DNA of 33,210 bases from a virus. A model generated the notes under the pieces. The model saw nothing but the letters and a program-made list of their open reading frames with translations, was not told where the DNA came from and did not search any database. The stretch covers positions 1 through 33,210 of the IMG/VR virus record IMGVR_UViG_3300044618_001730. One strand, written 5' to 3'. This document shows positions 7,624-33,210 of the stretch, piece after piece. Both the position numbers and the translations under genes were made by a program. The stretch's first letter is position 1; the number at the start of each line of letters is the position of its first letter.

Positions 7624-9132
7624 TCAGTAATAATCTGCACGACGCGGAAGCTCAGGCTCATCATCATAGTCAGACGGCAGTCGGACGAAACCACCCTGCC
7701 TGTATCTCATGAGAGCCATAATCACCGCGTCAACATAGTCATCGTGAGCCCCATTCGGGAAAGAGGCGCATTCCTCAATAACCTCATCGGCCCATCGCGT
7801 CTCGGGCGCCCACACTATACCAGAGGCAAACATATCGCTAACGCTATTTGCCCGCATGATCTTGTCGCCGGAAGCTCGCGTCGGGGTAAACTCCGACACA
7901 GGAATCCCAATCTGACGAAGCTCATGGATCAGAGGCAAGCCCGAAGCCTTGCCTTCGACCAGCATCGTATCCGGCTGCCACTCCTTATAGACCTCCAGAG
8001 CCCGCTGCTTCAGGTCCGGGAACTCCAGACGATCCTTAAAGGCGTCGAGGAGAATAATATTCTGCCCCTCGACTCCAGAATCATTCACCTTGTTAAACAC
8101 GCCCCAGACAGTGAAGGCGCTGTAGTCCGAGCGATTGTTCTTGGTGAAGGCGGTGTCGGCAGATATGATGATGTATTCGCACTCGGGCGGGCGGCCCCGA
8201 TCCCAACGCTTCCACCACTCTCTCTTGAGAATGGCTCCCTCAGCATTGGTCGGCTGCTGCTGATACTGAGCATTCCACTTGTGGGCGGGCAGTTCTGACT
8301 TCAGCGCCTGAAGCGCCTCGATCTTCCAGAACTGGGGCCACAGAGAGTTTCCCGATGGCAGAATGGCGGGAAGCTCAATGACCTCCCACTCAGACTCCCC
8401 ATCTCCCCGATCCATTGATGTCTGAATCAGACGGCCTGTCAGGTCTCGCTTGCCCCATCGAGTCATAACAATCACGATGCGGGCATCCGGCTGAAGGCGC
8501 TGCCGAGGACCGGACGTGTACCAGTCGAACGCCTTGTCGTAGATCGCAGGATCATGAGCGGCCAGAATGGCCTCTTGCTCCGTGTGCGGGTCATCAATGA
8601 TGAAGAGGTCCGCACCCTTACCGGCAATCGCACCACCAACACCCACGGCAAAGTACTCGCCGCCCTTGTTGGTCGCCCAGCGACCGGATGCCTTGGAGTC
8701 AGACTGAAGCTCTACGTCTGGAAAGATTTTCTGGAAGTCTTCAGTGTCCAGAAGGTTCCGGACCTTCCGACCAAAGTTCACTGCCAACTCAGCCGTGTGG
8801 GTGGCCTGGATGATCTTCTTGTCCGGGAAGTTCCCCATGAACCAAGCAGGCAGGAGGAAAGACGCAAACTCCGACTTCGTGTGTCGGGGCGGCATGTTGA
8901 TGATGAGCCGCTTGCAGTCTCCGAAGAGAACCTTCTCGAAGGCTTCTGCCATGATCTTGTGGTGGGCGCCGTCGATAAAGCCCGGCCACATCTGTCGGAC
9001 GAACGCCAGAAACTTCTTCCTGGAAGCCTCCCGGCCCTTGGCCAGTTCCAATTTCTCCACAAGCCTTAGCAGTTCTACCTGCTCAGACTCGGGAAGCTCT
9101 TTGATCTTGGGCAGAATGTCTTCGAGGTTCAC
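7624..9132 (-). CDS. terminase large subunit
   Basis: A 502-residue packaging motor with both halves visible. The ATPase half has a Walker A variant PPRHTKS at residues 81-87 and Walker B LFIIDD at 176-181, followed by a coupling motif region near MTRWG (223-227). The C-terminal nuclease half has the RNase H-like acidic residues: Asp326 in ISADTAF, Glu393 in VEGKASG and Asp464/465/468 in AHDDYVDA. It cuts and pumps DNA through the portal encoded next door. The start is GTG at 9132, directly after an intrinsic-terminator hairpin and without a visible Shine-Dalgarno. The N-terminal helix after it looks family-like, so this start is kept, with some doubt. Confidence 0.9.
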   Translation of the reverse strand: MNLEDILPKIKELPESEQVELLRLVEKLELAKGREASRKKFLAFVRQMWPGFIDGAHHKIMAEAFEKVLFGDCKRLIINMPPRHTKSEFASFLLPAWFMGNFPDKKIIQATHTAELAVNFGRKVRNLLDTEDFQKIFPDVELQSDSKASGRWATNKGGEYFAVGVGGAIAGKGADLFIIDDPHTEQEAILAAHDPAIYDKAFDWYTSGPRQRLQPDARIVIVMTRWGKRDLTGRLIQTSMDRGDGESEWEVIELPAILPSGNSLWPQFWKIEALQALKSELPAHKWNAQYQQQPTNAEGAILKREWWKRWDRGRPPECEYIIISADTAFTKNNRSDYSAFTVWGVFNKVNDSGVEGQNIILLDAFKDRLEFPDLKQRALEVYKEWQPDTMLVEGKASGLPLIHELRQIGIPVSEFTPTRASGDKIMRANSVSDMFASGIVWAPETRWADEVIEECASFPNGAHDDYVDAVIMALMRYRQGGFVRLPSDYDDEPELPRRADYY

Positions 9133-9133
9133 G

Positions 9134-9159
9134 AAAAAAGGCCCCCATTGCTGGGGGCC
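9134..9159 (-). terminator. intrinsic terminator hairpin abutting the large terminase start
   Basis: On the minus strand a perfect 7-bp GC stem (9153-9159 with 9140-9146, loop of 6) is followed by six T (9134-9139), then one C, then the GTG start of the large terminase. It would end transcripts coming from the LexA-like gene or from the promoter-like sequence at 9211-9239. It may therefore act as an attenuator. On the plus strand there is no T tract, so it is not bidirectional. Confidence 0.75.
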
Positions 9160-9210
9160 AAGTCACACTCACGGAGAGACTGAACCGTCAGACGACGGAG
9201 GTCCGAGCCC

Positions 9211-9239
9211 ATTCCATCAAATACTGCCCCAAGGGTCAA
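9211..9239 (-). promoter_or_regulatory. putative sigma70-type promoter for large terminase
   Basis: Reading the minus strand, TTGACC (9239-9234) is followed after 17 bases by TGGAAT (9216-9211). The start of transcription would fall near 9204, giving a leader of about 70 bases that contains the terminator hairpin and then the terminase start. The -35 box is good and the -10 box moderate (4 of 6). It lies in the short gap after the LexA-like gene. Confidence 0.45.
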
Positions 9240-9247
9240 GGAAATCA

Positions 9248-9496
9248 TCAAGCGGCCTTCTCAATGACAGCGAGCGAACGCGCTCGCCTTGGCAGAAGTT
9301 CCAGATGGCCGCGCTCAACGAGCGCATCAATCATCCGCTTCACACCAGACTTGGACGCAATGCCAACTGACTCACCAATCTCCTGATAGGATGGTGAGTA
9401 ACCCTTCTCAGCACAATACTTTTTCACAAACTCCAGCACCAAATGCTGCTTCATGGTCACGCCAAGTTTGCCCGAAGGGTATTTCCTGCCCGACAT
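9248..9496 (-). CDS. LexA-type winged-helix DNA-binding protein
   Basis: An 82-residue protein corresponding to the N-terminal DNA-binding domain of LexA without the peptidase half. 'VLEFVKKYCAEKGYSPSYQE' matches the LexA helix 1 region, followed by 'IGESVGIASKSGVKRMIDAL' (helix-turn-helix) and 'RGHLELLPRRARSLAV' (wing and end). The ATG at 9496 lies 1 base after the stop of the upstream gene (TAGGATG). It could be a repressor for the divergent region or for the late genes. Alternatively it could be an accessory packaging factor, since it sits between the two terminase genes. The missing Ser/Lys protease means it cannot self-cleave. Confidence 0.7.
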   Translation of the reverse strand: MSGRKYPSGKLGVTMKQHLVLEFVKKYCAEKGYSPSYQEIGESVGIASKSGVKRMIDALVERGHLELLPRRARSLAVIEKAA

Positions 9497-29904: not shown

Positions 29905-30369
29905 ATGCTCATCCGCCTGGACGAGTTAGAGATTGCGATAGGCCAAACAATCGGCCTGAAGAGGCACGAGAACGGCCAGAACCGCAGGACGACTCGCGGG
30001 CTGGCGGCTGAGTATTCCCTGGACTTCCATACTCTCGGGGCCTTTGGAGAGCTTGCTGTTGCGAGAATCCTGAACGTCTATCCGGGGTTCATCCTCAACA
30101 CATTCAAAGGCCCCGACATCGAACCCGACGTTCAGGTTCGCACCACCAGACACAAGAACGGCAGGCTCATCATGACCGATGATGACCCGCCCTTTCACAG
30201 ATACGTCCTTGTGACTGGTGATGCGCCTGAACTGGAGATCGTTGGCTGGATGTGGGGATACGATGGCCAGGAAAAGAAGTGGCTGACTGATCCGAAGAAC
30301 AACAGACCGCCCGCCTACTTCGTCCCCAGGGATGCACTCAAGCCTATCGAGACGCTGAATGAGGGTTAA
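29905..30369 (+). CDS. putative PD-(D/E)XK-fold protein
   Basis: A 154-residue protein. 'LGAFGELAVARILNVYPGFI' (helix with Glu), 'GPDIEPDVQVRTTRHKNGRL' (Asp followed by V-Q-V-R) and 'HRYVLVTGDAPELEIVGWMW' follow the order of a nuclease fold: Glu helix, Asp strand, Gln/Lys strand, beta strand, with Q-V-R in place of E-x-K. This may be a nuclease or a substrate-binding relative. Its place after ERF/SSB and directly before an HNH-like gene supports a recombination role. It overlaps the next gene by 11 bases. Confidence 0.55.
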   Translation: MLIRLDELEIAIGQTIGLKRHENGQNRRTTRGLAAEYSLDFHTLGAFGELAVARILNVYPGFILNTFKGPDIEPDVQVRTTRHKNGRLIMTDDDPPFHRYVLVTGDAPELEIVGWMWGYDGQEKKWLTDPKNNRPPAYFVPRDALKPIETLNEG

Positions 30370-30616
30370 GAACACAAAGCATCTGACGTGGGTCAGGACG
30401 CAAGGCTGTCTGATTTGCGAAAGATGGGCACAGGCACACCACCTAATGTTTGCCGAGCCTTCGGCTATGGGCAGAAAGAGTGGTGATGATTGGGCCGTTC
30501 CTTTGTGCGCCGACCATCACACAGAACTGCATGCTTATGGGGATGAGAAGACATGGTGGGACCTGAAGGGTGTGGACCCGGTGGAGTGGTGCAAGCGACA
30601 CGGGTCAAAGCAATGA
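30359..30616 (+). CDS. HNH-like protein (DUF968-like)
   Basis: An 85-residue protein with 'TQGCLICERWAQAHHLMFAE' (C-x2-C and His-His), 'DDWAVPLCADHHTELHAYGD' (C-x2-H-H, H) and 'WWDLKGVDPVEWCKRH'. This is the ββα-metal layout of small HNH proteins such as DUF968/Ref-like recombination nucleases. The first Cys pair and the later Cys/His would hold zinc; the His-His is the catalytic candidate. It begins inside the previous gene and overlaps the next start as ATGA. Confidence 0.75.
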   Translation: MRVKNTKHLTWVRTQGCLICERWAQAHHLMFAEPSAMGRKSGDDWAVPLCADHHTELHAYGDEKTWWDLKGVDPVEWCKRHGSKQ

Positions 30617-30786
30617 ACCCGCACTATGCGGGACAGATCATGCGTGAAGTTGACGTTCTGCCCCGTGCTGATGGGCAGAATTGGAAGGTCGGGGACGAAG
30701 TTGGTCTGCATGGAGCGGTTTGGACCGAACGCGGCGACGCCAAGGTCTATGCAGTAATTACGGAGATTGTTGATGTTCGAGATTGA
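30613..30786 (+). CDS. 57-residue beta protein
   Basis: A short protein starting at ATG 30613 (ATGA overlap): 'PHYAGQIMREVDVLPRADGQ', 'NWKVGDEVGLHGAVWTERGD', 'AKVYAVITEIVDVRD'. Glycines at strand turns suggest an SH3-like small barrel. Function unknown. It overlaps the next gene by 14 bases. Confidence 0.55.
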   Translation: MNPHYAGQIMREVDVLPRADGQNWKVGDEVGLHGAVWTERGDAKVYAVITEIVDVRD

Positions 30787-31003
30787 GAAAGGCGTCCCTG
30801 TTCCGCGTAACTACATGGGCCGCAAGTCGAAGAAGCGTGAAGCCATGATCGCCACCATGAATGCCATGAATGTGGGTGACAGCTTCCGCGTTGAGTACAA
30901 GCTGCCGTCTATGCGTAACTTCATCCGCAACTGTGGGATCGACGGCTCGTTCCGTGCGGCCCAGGAGAGCGACACGCACATCCGCGTCTGGCGGGTGGGC
31001 TAA
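30773..31003 (+). CDS. conserved small phage protein
   Basis: A 76-residue protein of the type 'M-F-E-I-E-K-G-V-P-V-P' followed by a Lys-rich segment 'GRKSKKREAMIATMNAM', then 'NVGDSFRVEYKLPSMRNFIR' and a last strand 'DTHIRVWRVG'. Small phage proteins with 'I-E-K-G-x-P-x-P' and 'M-x-V-G-D-S-F' are widespread; function unknown. ATG at 30773 has GGAG 7 bases upstream and is preferred over TTG at 30767. Confidence 0.65.
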   Translation: MFEIEKGVPVPRNYMGRKSKKREAMIATMNAMNVGDSFRVEYKLPSMRNFIRNCGIDGSFRAAQESDTHIRVWRVG

Positions 31004-31007
31004 TGGG

Positions 31008-31025
31008 TGGGGGCGAAAGCCCCCA
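31008..31025 (+). promoter_or_regulatory. GNRA-loop hairpin in the leader of the IS110-type gene
   Basis: TGGGGGC (31008-31014) and GCCCCCA (31019-31025) form a perfect 7-bp stem around GAAA, extendable by GG/CC across one bulged base. No T tract follows, so it is not a classical terminator. It sits 25 bases before the ATG at 31050 and could shield the transcript or bind a protein. Confidence 0.55.
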
Positions 31026-31049
31026 TACCAAGAACCACGGAGAGAACAA

Positions 31050-31871
31050 ATGAGTGACATAGACCTGATGCCGGTCATCCGGCTGACCAAAGACCTGAAG
31101 AGCGCCGCCCGCACACTGTCGAGCGACGAGGCGCGCTTCCTTGTGGACGCCTATTACGCCATGCAGGAGGACCGCATTCGCGCCGCCCACCAGCATCGCA
31201 GTCTGACTGAATCCGGGGAGCCCGCCGATGTGATGACGTGGCTGATGGATCAGCGTGAGGTTCTTGAGAAGCAAGTGGCCCGTGCGCTGGATGCGTATAG
31301 CGGCTCCAATCAGGTTGGCTCCTGGGCGCGCTCCATCGTCGGCATTGGCCCCGTCATCTCGGCTGGTCTGCTGGCTCACATCGACATCACCAAGGCTCCG
31401 ACCGTGGGCCACATCTGGCGCTATGCCGGTCTTGATCCGACCCAGACCTGGGAGAAGGGGCAGAAGCGTCCTTGGAACGCTCGCCTCAAGACGCTGTGCT
31501 GGAAGATTGGCGAGAGCTTCGTGAAGGTGTCTGGAAACGAGAAGGACATCTACGGCAAGGTCTACAAGGAGCGGAAGGAGATCGAGGCCGCTCGCAACGA
31601 GAAGCTTGAGTTCTCGGAGCAGGCCATCGCCATCCTGGGCAAGAAGCGGTTTGGCGCTGATACCCAGGCCAAGAAGTTCTACGAGCAGCAGATGCTGCCC
31701 CCTGCCCACATTCATGCGCGAGCCAAGCGGTACGCGGTGAAGCTGTTCCTCTCGCACCTTCACCATGTCTGGTGGGAAGTGCAGACGGGCGAGAAGCCGC
31801 CCAAGCCGTATGTGCTGACCCACATGGGCCATGCCCACTACATCGCGCCGCCTAACTGGCCGATGAGCTAA
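31050..31871 (+). CDS. IS110-type helix-hairpin-helix protein (Transposase_20-like), no transposase active site seen
   Basis: A 273-residue protein. Residues 98-113 'GIGPVISAGLLAHIDI' and the following 'VGHIWRYAGLDP' match the C-terminal helix-hairpin-helix domain of IS110/IS116/IS902 transposases. Two parts needed for transposition are missing: the N-terminal RuvC-like DEDD domain (the first 95 residues are a helical region) and the Ser-Gly after 'YAGLxP', which here reads 'TQTWEKGQ'. It is probably a phage DNA- or RNA-binding protein derived from that domain. The C-terminal 'AKRYAVKLFLSHLHHVWWEV' is typical of phage homologues. The repeat array begins 13 bases after its stop. Confidence 0.75.
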   Translation: MSDIDLMPVIRLTKDLKSAARTLSSDEARFLVDAYYAMQEDRIRAAHQHRSLTESGEPADVMTWLMDQREVLEKQVARALDAYSGSNQVGSWARSIVGIGPVISAGLLAHIDITKAPTVGHIWRYAGLDPTQTWEKGQKRPWNARLKTLCWKIGESFVKVSGNEKDIYGKVYKERKEIEAARNEKLEFSEQAIAILGKKRFGADTQAKKFYEQQMLPPAHIHARAKRYAVKLFLSHLHHVWWEVQTGEKPPKPYVLTHMGHAHYIAPPNWPMS

Positions 31872-31883
31872 GTCAACTTTCAG

Positions 31884-32921
31884 GAGAGTACCAGAAACGG
31901 AAAGCGAACCAGACGAAAAAGAAAGTCCCAGGACGAGTGAGTGAGTCTAGGCGGCGCGAGAGTTCCACAAGCGACGAACGAACCAACATATGAGAGAGCG
32001 CCATCTCGCGTGAGTGAACCATCATGGCTGAGAGTTCCACAGACGAAAAGTGAACCAAGGTACGAAAGAGTCTCAACCACTGCGAGTGAACCACTGAGCA
32101 TGAGAGTGCCTAGTGTGGAGAGTGAACCATTGAAAGCGAGAGTGCCGCGTCGTCGGAGTGAACCACGCTACATAAGTGTGCCACCGTAGCAGAGTGAGCC
32201 AGTGCCTAAGATAGCTTCATGGTAATCGAGCGAGTCAAACCGTAGGAGAGTTCCATATGGCCCGAACGAGACTTGGAATGCGACAGCGCCATAGCACGGA
32301 TCGAACCATGACTTACGAGAGTTCCAGTTTTCGGGAGTGAATCAATTGACCAGAGAGCGCCAAAAGGAGGGAGTGAACCAACCATAGGGAGAGTTCCATC
32401 GTTCGAGAGTGAACCGCACTGACAGAGAGCGCCAACGTTCCTGAGTGAGACATGAGACCAGAGAGTTCCACGGTCTAAGATCGAACCACTACCAAGGTAG
32501 AGTTCCAGAAGACTGGAGTGATCCATTAGGCGTAAGAGTACCATCCCGCCGGAGTGAACCATCGTCGTCAAGAGTTCCATCGTAAGTGAGTGAACCACTG
32601 GTTCGGAGAGTTCCATTACGAAGGAGTGAACCAAGTCTAGCGAGAGCGCCTAGGCCCCTGAGTGAACCATCCGGGTAGAGAGTTCCGCACCCTGAGAGTG
32701 AACCATCACAGTGGAGAGTTCCATAGACAATGAGTGAGCCATTGAGGCCGAGAGTTCCAGCGATCACGAGTGAACCATCGCAGACGAGAGTTCCATAATC
32801 GACAAGTGAACCACTGATGCAGAGAGCTCCAATTTGAGGAAGTGATCCAAGTGCCTTGAGAGTACCATCGGAGTTGAGAGAGGCATCACGTCCGAGAGCG
32901 CCATGAAAAGCGAACGAAAGG
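31884..32921. repeat. 18-base periodic array of 58 alternating ten-base words with variable spacers
   Basis: Fifty-eight words of 10 bases alternate strictly: type B (GAGAGTTCCA and variants, 29 copies) and type A (GAGTGAACCA and variants, 29 copies). Spacers are 8 bases in 53 of 57 cases; the exceptions are 31912-31920, 31949-31957 and 32489-32497 (9 bases) and 32292-32298 (7). From 32498 to 32912 the rhythm is exact for 23 steps. All 57 spacers differ. Eleven A words and ten B words match their consensus exactly. Common B variants are GAGAGCGCCA and GAGAGTACCA. Reading the minus strand in one frame gives a hexapeptide repeat G-S-L-x-x-x-G-T-L-x-x-x, interrupted by the length changes and one TAG at 32168-32170. 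Confidence 0.93.
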
Positions 32922-32927
32922 TCTAGA

Positions 32928-33210
32928 ATGGCAGAACCCAAACAGCCTTGGCTGAAGTTCGAGGCGATCAAGACATCCATGCGGCAGGATGGAAAAGGGA
33001 CATACATGACCCTGACCATCCACCCGGATGAAGTGCCGGTCGATCTTCTCGCCGCCCGGCCCGGCACGCGATACATGGTCGGAATGCTGCCCGTCGATGA
33101 CCATGACCGGCCCGTCAAAGGCAAGGACATGGAAGACGGCGAGCGCGCCGTTCAGTCCGCAGGCATGCTCTGCCGCAACATCAAGTTCCAGAAGTGGATG
33201 ATGGACAACG
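32928..33210 (+). CDS. conserved phage protein, 3' end outside window
   Basis: The ATG at 32928 begins a frame open to the window end (94 residues visible): 'AEPKQPWLKFEAIKTSMRQD', 'GTYMTLTIHPDEVPVDLLAA', then 'TRYMVGMLPVDDHDRPVKGK' and 'SAGMLCRNIKFQKWM'. Proteins of the form 'W-L-K-x-E-A-I-K-x-S-x-x-x-D ... T-L-x-I-H-P-D-E-V-P' are common in phages near recombination or replication genes, with unknown function. The ribosome site AAAGG lies in the last, degenerate word of the repeat array, only 6 bases before the ATG. Confidence 0.75.
   Translation, partial: MAEPKQPWLKFEAIKTSMRQDGKGTYMTLTIHPDEVPVDLLAARPGTRYMVGMLPVDDHDRPVKGKDMEDGERAVQSAGMLCRNIKFQKWMMDN

What the first reader, a model, noticed from the sequence alone, without database searches (positions are those of the whole stretch)
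31884..32921. A 58-word, 18-base periodic array of two alternating words with all-different spacers
The sequence shows 29 B words (GAGAGTTCCA type) and 29 A words (GAGTGAACCA type) in strict alternation, with 8-base spacers in 53 of 57 cases and no repeated spacer. The words share GAG-N-G-NN-CCA and differ at position 4 (T or C versus A) and positions 6-7 (AA versus mostly TT, CG or TA). GAAC in A can pair with GTTC in B, so each neighbour pair could form a weak 4-bp stem in RNA. Unit and spacer are too short for CRISPR, and diverged copies with a kept rhythm point to selection on spacing. Possible roles: a dense protein-binding platform (partition, packaging, decoy), a repetitive RNA, or a decayed repeat gene on the minus strand. 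I know of no described element of this form.
Basis: partly seen in the sequence, partly recalled or inferred. Interest (0 to 1): 0.95.

Follow-up and report, generated by a model that had tools for sequence, protein, structure and literature searches.

The report
TIGR guide-RNA array beside phage TasA
The strange two-word repeat is a guide-RNA array of the recently described TIGR-Tas kind, in which a phage protein uses pairs of 8-letter guides to find DNA; it is a known kind of system, but this array is unusually long and its relatives show how whole guide units come and go.

Summary
The array is real: 57 full words plus truncated ends, two alternating 10-nt repeats, 8-nt spacers, all 57 spacers different, 52 of 56 steps exactly 18 bp. 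The gene just upstream (31050-31871) is its Tas protein: NCBIfam NF052498 TIGR_Tas, 226 bits against a cut-off of 100. Its predicted structure matches TasH and TasR RNP structures best (Z 18-19) and has no room for a nuclease domain, so it is a TasA. Relatives in phages and bacterial chromosomes carry the same pairing. The published Salicola phage TasH array has near-identical repeats. Clean gaps between related arrays are whole 36-bp units beginning at GAGTGAACCA, so that is the edge repeat and GAGAGTTCCA the loop. The array predicts 29 tigRNAs; 5-15 units is usual. Protein coding and RNA stems were tested and rejected. No target was found for this array. One relative gives an exact match in a co-resident integrated phage element: a lead, not statistically secure.

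The parts
31050..31871 (+). tasA: Nop-domain (IS110 C-terminal-like) TIGR-associated protein, 273 aa, no nuclease domain
   Evidence: NCBIfam NF052498 226 bits; phrog_4285; AF2 model against TasH/TasR Z 18-19; model residues 22-272 align to the Nop part of TasH only
31868..31875 (+). 5'-truncated edge repeat overlapping the tasA stop codon (..TAAGTCA)
   Evidence: read from the sequence in register with the array; the same place in L016 (TAAGTCA) and L004/L010 (AAGTAATCCG)
31876..32911 (+). TIGR dual-repeat array: 29 units [edge GAGTGAACCA - 8-nt spacer A - loop GAGAGTTCCA - 8-nt spacer B]
   Evidence: which repeat is edge and which is loop follows from indel boundaries between related arrays
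32912..32917 (+). 3'-truncated edge repeat (GAACGA), 10 bp before the next start codon
   Evidence: read from the sequence and conserved in L016
32928..33210 (+). downstream gene (cut by the contig end), conserved after the array in close relatives; same strand, so array and genes may share a transcript
   Evidence: no + strand terminator found between array and gene

Best explanation
This is a TIGR-TasA locus of a tailed phage. The array is transcribed on the + strand, probably together with tasA and the next gene, and cut in the middle of each GAGTGAACCA edge repeat into 36-nt tigRNAs: half edge, spacer A, loop GAGAGTTCCA, spacer B, half edge. A TasA dimer holds each tigRNA by the shared repeat motifs. 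It binds DNA in which spacer A pairs with one strand and spacer B with the other, that is, sites reading spacer A + 0-2 bp + reverse complement of spacer B. As TasA has no nuclease domain, it most likely acts by binding, bending and blocking its target, probably on rival mobile DNA. Shown here: anatomy, protein family, fold, unit structure, conservation and turnover. Inferred from the published systems: processing, pairing rule, DNA binding. Speculative: who the targets are and the effect on them.
For: NF052498 TIGR_Tas at 226 bits. phmmer and profile hits to TasR 9mty (2e-21) and TasH 21kl (8e-13). Fold match: TasH Z 19.1, TasR Z 18.0, IS621 Z 13.1. The array layout meets the defining features in Faure et al.. 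The published Salicola CGphi29 TasH locus has edge AAGCGAGCCA, loop AAGACAACCA and 8-nt spacers, downstream of tas like here. Different phage groups use different but matched repeat pairs: GAGTGAACCA/GAGAGTTCCA, GATCGAGACA/GAGAGAACCA, GAGCGAGCCG/GAGAGTGCCG. In the last, the final A has become G in both repeats, as expected if a symmetric dimer reads both. All nine clean gaps between related arrays (about six separate events) are whole 36-bp units bounded at the edge repeat; adjacency of a spacer pair is kept 43 of 49 times inside a unit against 21 of 44 across units, Fisher p=4e-5, though three of the four comparisons share phages.
Against: No RNA data; processing and targeting are not tested here. 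No terminator was found after the array, while published arrays usually have one. No target for the window array was found in its own or related phage DNA: the TIGR configuration gave no more hits than wrong configurations. Two conserved spacer pairs gave 31 and 57 viral contigs against 49 for a wrong-configuration control. The family model is named 'endonuclease', but no nuclease domain is present.
Confidence: 0.95

Rival explanations
1. A decayed hexapeptide-repeat gene on the minus strand (x-G-S-L-x-x / x-G-T-L-x-x).
For: 18 bp is 6 codons; the variable repeat positions 1, 4 and 7 are third codon positions on the minus strand, and the minus frame reads GSL/GTL for long runs.
Against: Stops in the spacers at about chance rate in that frame (13 against 17.6 expected). 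Frame breaks and stops in the diverged relatives that keep the rhythm. No intact version in any relative found. Linked to a Tas gene.
Confidence: 0.01
2. A DNA platform of protein-binding sites (partition, packaging or decoy) bound by the neighbouring protein or a host factor, with the spacers mere filler.
For: Dense regular words; the neighbouring gene is linked to the array in nearly every relative examined.
Against: Spacers travel in fixed pairs as 36-bp units, which filler would not need. The neighbour belongs to a family of RNA-guided proteins with solved tigRNA complexes. Both repeats change together between phage groups.
Confidence: 0.02
3. A relic TIGR array that is no longer used: repeats and spacers drift and the units are inherited but idle.
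For: Several units have damaged repeats, for example at 31921, 31939, 32210, 32264. Spacers of shared units differ at 13% of positions between window and L016, about as much as the flanking DNA.
Against: Many units have perfect repeats; C at position 9 never changes in 379 words and position 2 is A in 377 (which includes near-identical copies). tasA is 97% conserved between window and L016. Unit gain and loss continues in close relatives.
Confidence: 0.1

Closest known systems
TIGR-TasH of Salicola phage CGphi29 (SpTIGR; Faure et al. 2025, PMC12045711; PDB 21kl, 9vzx, 9w02-9w04)
   Same: Array directly downstream of the tas gene; 10-nt repeats RAG-N-N-N-N-CCA; 8-nt spacers; 36-nt unit; same Nop fold
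   Different: TasH has an N-terminal HNH nuclease and about 10 units with a terminator; the window protein has no nuclease part and 29 units with no terminator found; about 30% protein identity
TIGR-TasA (Flavonifractor plautii FpTIGR and other solo-Nop systems, PMC12045711)
   Same: Solo Nop-domain protein with a dual-repeat array
   Different: FpTIGR has 9-nt spacers (18 nt in all) according to the paper; here 8-nt spacers, and longer and more degenerate arrays. No sequence comparison was made
TIGR-TasR (TaTasR, PDB 9mty)
   Same: Nop fold, edge and loop repeats ending in CCA, 36-nt unit
   Different: TasR has an N-terminal RuvC nuclease; its repeats begin with UG, while here the conserved core is GAG-N-G..CCA
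IS110-family RNA-guided transposases (IS621, PDB 8wt6)
   Same: Related C-terminal/Nop-like domain (Pfam Transposase_20; Z 13)
   Different: No DEDD catalytic domain, no bridge RNA of that form; scores 23 bits against a cut-off of 140 for the IS110 NCBIfam model

Membership tests
TIGR-Tas (dual-repeat type) | Nop-domain Tas protein encoded next to the array | tested here: met
   NF052498 226 bits, cut-off 100; fold Z 18-19 to TasH/TasR
TIGR-Tas (dual-repeat type) | Two distinct alternating 8-12-nt repeats with short spacers (8-9, up to 12 nt), 36-nt unit | tested here: met
   10-nt repeats, 8-nt spacers, period 36
TIGR-Tas (dual-repeat type) | Box C/D-like motifs shared by both repeats and varying together between loci | tested here: met
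   Shared GAG-N-G..CCA; CCA becomes CCG in both repeats of L026-L028. Partial exception: GATCGAGACA/GAGAGAACCA in L020-L024
[quoted passage not shown]
   TAAGTCA at 31869-31875 and GAACGA at 32912-32917, once the edge is assigned
TIGR-Tas (dual-repeat type) | Rho-independent terminator after the array (usual, not defining) | tested here: not met
   No + strand terminator-like site in 30300-33210; a same-strand gene follows at 32928
TIGR-Tas (dual-repeat type) | Processing into 36-nt tigRNAs bound by Tas | not testable with these tools
   needs small-RNA sequencing
TIGR-Tas (dual-repeat type) | Tandem-spacer DNA targeting (A on one strand, B on the other) | tested here: inconclusive
   No excess of correctly configured matches for the window array; one exact match for a relative
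TasA subtype (no nuclease domain) | Solo Nop domain, no HNH or RuvC | tested here: met
   273 aa; residues 22-272 align to TasH 65-309 and 24-271 to TasR 110-322; no nuclease family in Pfam
IS110 transposase | DEDD RuvC-like N-terminal domain | tested here: not met
   only Transposase_20 matches; NF033542 23 bits against 140
CRISPR | One repeat of 25-36 nt with similar-sized spacers and cas genes | tested here: not met
   two 10-nt repeats, 8-nt spacers; no Pfam, PHROGs or PADLOC match of the neighbouring genes to a cas gene

The most novel reading that the evidence does not exclude
TIGR-TasA in phages is an RNA-guided weapon in which one mobile element silences others. The array of a chromosomal relative (Acidobacteriaceae KBS 96) holds a unit whose predicted target matches exactly, without a gap, the start of the excisionase-type HTH gene of a second integrated element (integrase, repressor, capsid, protease) in the same genome. 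Such arrays would be reshuffled by gain and loss of whole 36-bp units in the middle of the array, not by duplication of resident units.
Probability: 0.25. Interest if true: 0.8.

Novelty: new member of a known kind. Interest (0 to 1): 0.42.

Why it matters
What TIGR-TasA systems target and how their arrays grow are named as open questions in the founding paper. This phage group offers long arrays (29 units here, about 46 in L021), several arrays per genome (L026, L027) and sets of closely related arrays that differ by whole 36-bp units. That makes unit turnover, the edge/loop assignment and the search for targets tractable by comparison alone. If the satellite match holds, it would be a natural target and would support interference between mobile elements without cutting.

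Tried and rejected
Minus-strand hexapeptide gene: stops at about chance rate in spacers and in relatives. RNA stems between neighbouring words: no excess folding; the loop repeat has TT at positions 6-7 in only 87 of 192 words, so GTTC is often absent. Rfam: nothing. tRNAs: none. PADLOC: nothing. My first assignment (edge = GAGAGTTCCA, because word chains began and ended with it) was wrong; indel boundaries and truncated ends show edge = GAGTGAACCA. Targets: units of the window array and of related arrays against own and related phage DNA, four configurations and both phases, no excess; IMG/VR scans for two conserved pairs at chance level; four Halomonas sp. NO4 units against its own genome, none. 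New units are not copies of resident units: no excess of similar unit pairs in most arrays (one pair at 12 of 16 in L010, 0.03 expected). Pair 3-8 covariation inside the edge repeat is suggestive between phage groups (G-C against T-A) but not within the window group. BLASTN of the region against phage records: no match.

Full report
Observation. The array is as described, with small corrections. Words of 10 nt alternate: GAGAGTTCCA type and GAGTGAACCA type, 8-nt spacers, 57 full words, all 57 spacers different. Of the 56 steps, 52 are exactly 18 bp, three are 19 and one is 17. Autocorrelation at lag 36 is z=17, with nothing comparable elsewhere in the window. The window is a whole IMG/VR virus record of 33,210 bases with terminase, portal, capsid, primase-helicase and Erf genes.

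The neighbour gives the identity. The gene ending just before the array (31050-31871) matches Pfam Transposase_20 weakly and phrog_4285 'transposase' strongly. By sequence it matches solved TasR (9mty) and TasH (21kl), and above all the curated NCBIfam model NF052498 TIGR_Tas at 226 bits, cut-off 100. An AlphaFold2 model from 12 homologues (pLDDT 83) matches TasH-tigRNA complexes (Z 19.1), TasR (Z 18.0) and, less well, IS621 transposase (Z 13.1); unrelated chains reach about Z 9. The match covers model residues 22-272 and the Nop part of TasH (65-309) and TasR (110-322). Only some 21 residues are left at the N terminus, so there is no HNH or RuvC domain: it is the TasA type.

What TIGR arrays are (Faure et al. 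2025, PMC12045711): two alternating 8-12-nt repeats (edge, loop) with spacers of about 9 nt, next to a Nop-domain Tas gene; truncated edge repeats at both ends; processing into 36-nt tigRNAs cut within the edge repeat; spacer A pairs with one strand and spacer B with the other; natural targets and the mode of array growth unknown; usually 5-15 units. From the cleavage rule in that paper I derived that a target reads, on one strand, spacer A + 0-2 bp + reverse complement of spacer B (inference).

Direct comparison with a published member. The Salicola phage CGphi29 TasH locus, used in that paper, has repeats AAGCGAGCCA and AAGACAACCA with 8-nt spacers downstream of tas, ending in a truncated edge fused to a terminator. 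The window repeats differ from these at a few positions only. Microcystis phage Mvi-JY20 has a similar unannotated array after a distant Tas gene.

Relatives. A scan of IMG/VR with the two-word pattern and another with the protein gave contigs that carry arrays with the Tas gene on the same contig: near-identical copies (L002/L005/L012/L014/L015, L013/L018), close relatives (L016/L017; L004, L010, L019), and more distant ones (L006, L020-L024, L026-L029). L011 carries the array but is cut before tasA. One homologue, L025, showed no array. Distant groups have their own repeat pairs: GATCGAGACA with GAGAGAACCA (L020-L024, up to 93 words) and GAGCGAGCCG with GAGAGTGCCG (L026-L028, several arrays per contig). 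In the latter the final A has become G in both repeats, which fits a symmetric dimer reading both. None of seven neighbouring genes of the window is found in the DNA held for the distant groups; tasA plus array is the common module. Relatives also lie in bacterial chromosomes (Halomonas, Acidobacteriota and others), with arrays.

Which repeat is the edge, and how arrays change. I aligned the spacer order of window against L016 and of L010, L011 and L004 with each other. All nine clean gaps are even numbers of spacers lying between a spacer that follows GAGAGTTCCA and a GAGTGAACCA word; they stand for about six separate events. Adjacency is kept 43 of 49 times inside [GAGTGAACCA spacer GAGAGTTCCA spacer] and 21 of 44 times across such units (Fisher p=4e-5; the comparisons are not all independent). 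So the unit is 36 bp and starts in GAGTGAACCA, the edge. The array ends agree: TAAGTCA overlapping the tasA stop codon and GAACGA at 32912-32917 are the truncated edges. With 29 loop repeats, 29 tigRNAs are predicted. Between L004 and L011 two units are in swapped order (read). Units are gained or lost inside the array, not at one end, and in most arrays they are not similar to resident units beyond chance. Spacers in shared units differ at 13% of positions between window and L016, close to the divergence of the flanking DNA.

Rejected readings. Minus-strand protein: the repeats do read G-[ST]-L with variation at third positions, but stops occur in spacer codons at about the chance rate (13 against 17.6 expected) and relatives have stops and frame breaks. 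RNA stem of neighbouring words: folding energy equals that of shuffles, and the loop repeat often lacks GTTC. CRISPR and IS110 fail defining features (see membership test).

Targets. For the window and related arrays, correctly configured matches in own and related phage DNA are no more frequent than wrongly configured ones. IMG/VR scans for two spacer pairs conserved between window and L016 gave 31 and 57 contigs, against 49 for a wrong-configuration control. For Acidobacteriaceae KBS 96 (L170), whose prophage-like tasA locus has six units, one unit (TAAAAGCA / TTCGATTC) matches its own 6.7-Mb genome exactly and without a gap at 6,329,962-6,329,977. The site lies about 25-40 nt inside a small HTH/excisionase-type gene (HTH_17, phrog_66). 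That gene is divergent from a repressor and an integrase and on the same strand as capsid and prohead protease genes: an integrated phage or satellite. A second unit matches the same element about 900 bp away with two mismatches. Caution: the exact match has a chance expectation of about 0.06 for six units in that genome; the other five units gave no exact match there. Four Halomonas units gave none in their own genome. One exact match also fell in a foreign genome, where it must be chance, in a gene that looks like phosphatidylserine decarboxylase. I treat the site as a lead.

Mechanism. Shown: anatomy, family, fold, unit structure, conservation, unit turnover. Inferred from published TIGR systems: transcription, cutting in the edge repeat, loading on a TasA dimer, two-strand pairing. 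Speculative: blocking transcription or replication of rival mobile elements. The absence of a terminator and the same-strand gene 10 bp after the array suggest one transcript through tasA, array and the next gene (inference).

Verdict. A new, unusually long member of a known kind.

Noticed in passing
L026 (835-10952) and L027 (4657-15111): Five to six separate dual-repeat arrays within about 10 kb around one tasA, all with the GAGCGAGCCG/GAGAGTGCCG pair.
   Followed up: partly
L021 2326-3991: Very long array, 93 words (about 46 units) with no irregular step, upstream of tasA.
   Followed up: partly
L192 1501-1516 (G001:C1:6329962-6329977): Exact, gapless candidate target of a TIGR unit of the same genome (L170 array), in the excisionase-type gene of an integrated element with capsid, protease, repressor and integrase genes.
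   Followed up: partly
window array and relatives, spacer position 1: First spacer base is T in 48% (after edge) and 41% (after loop) of distinct spacers; reason unknown.
   Followed up: no
L016 1436-1689: The small HNH/DUF968 gene three genes upstream of tasA appears in two pieces (frame break) in this relative but intact in the window (30359-30616).
   Followed up: no
L003 about 8700-9300: A weak 36-bp periodic array on the minus strand in a contig where no tasA relative was found in the DNA held.
   Followed up: no
L031 3620-3960: Microcystis phage Mvi-JY20 has an unannotated dual-repeat array (ATGCGAGCC / ACGAAACCC) ending in a terminator after a distant Tas gene annotated as hypothetical.
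   Followed up: no
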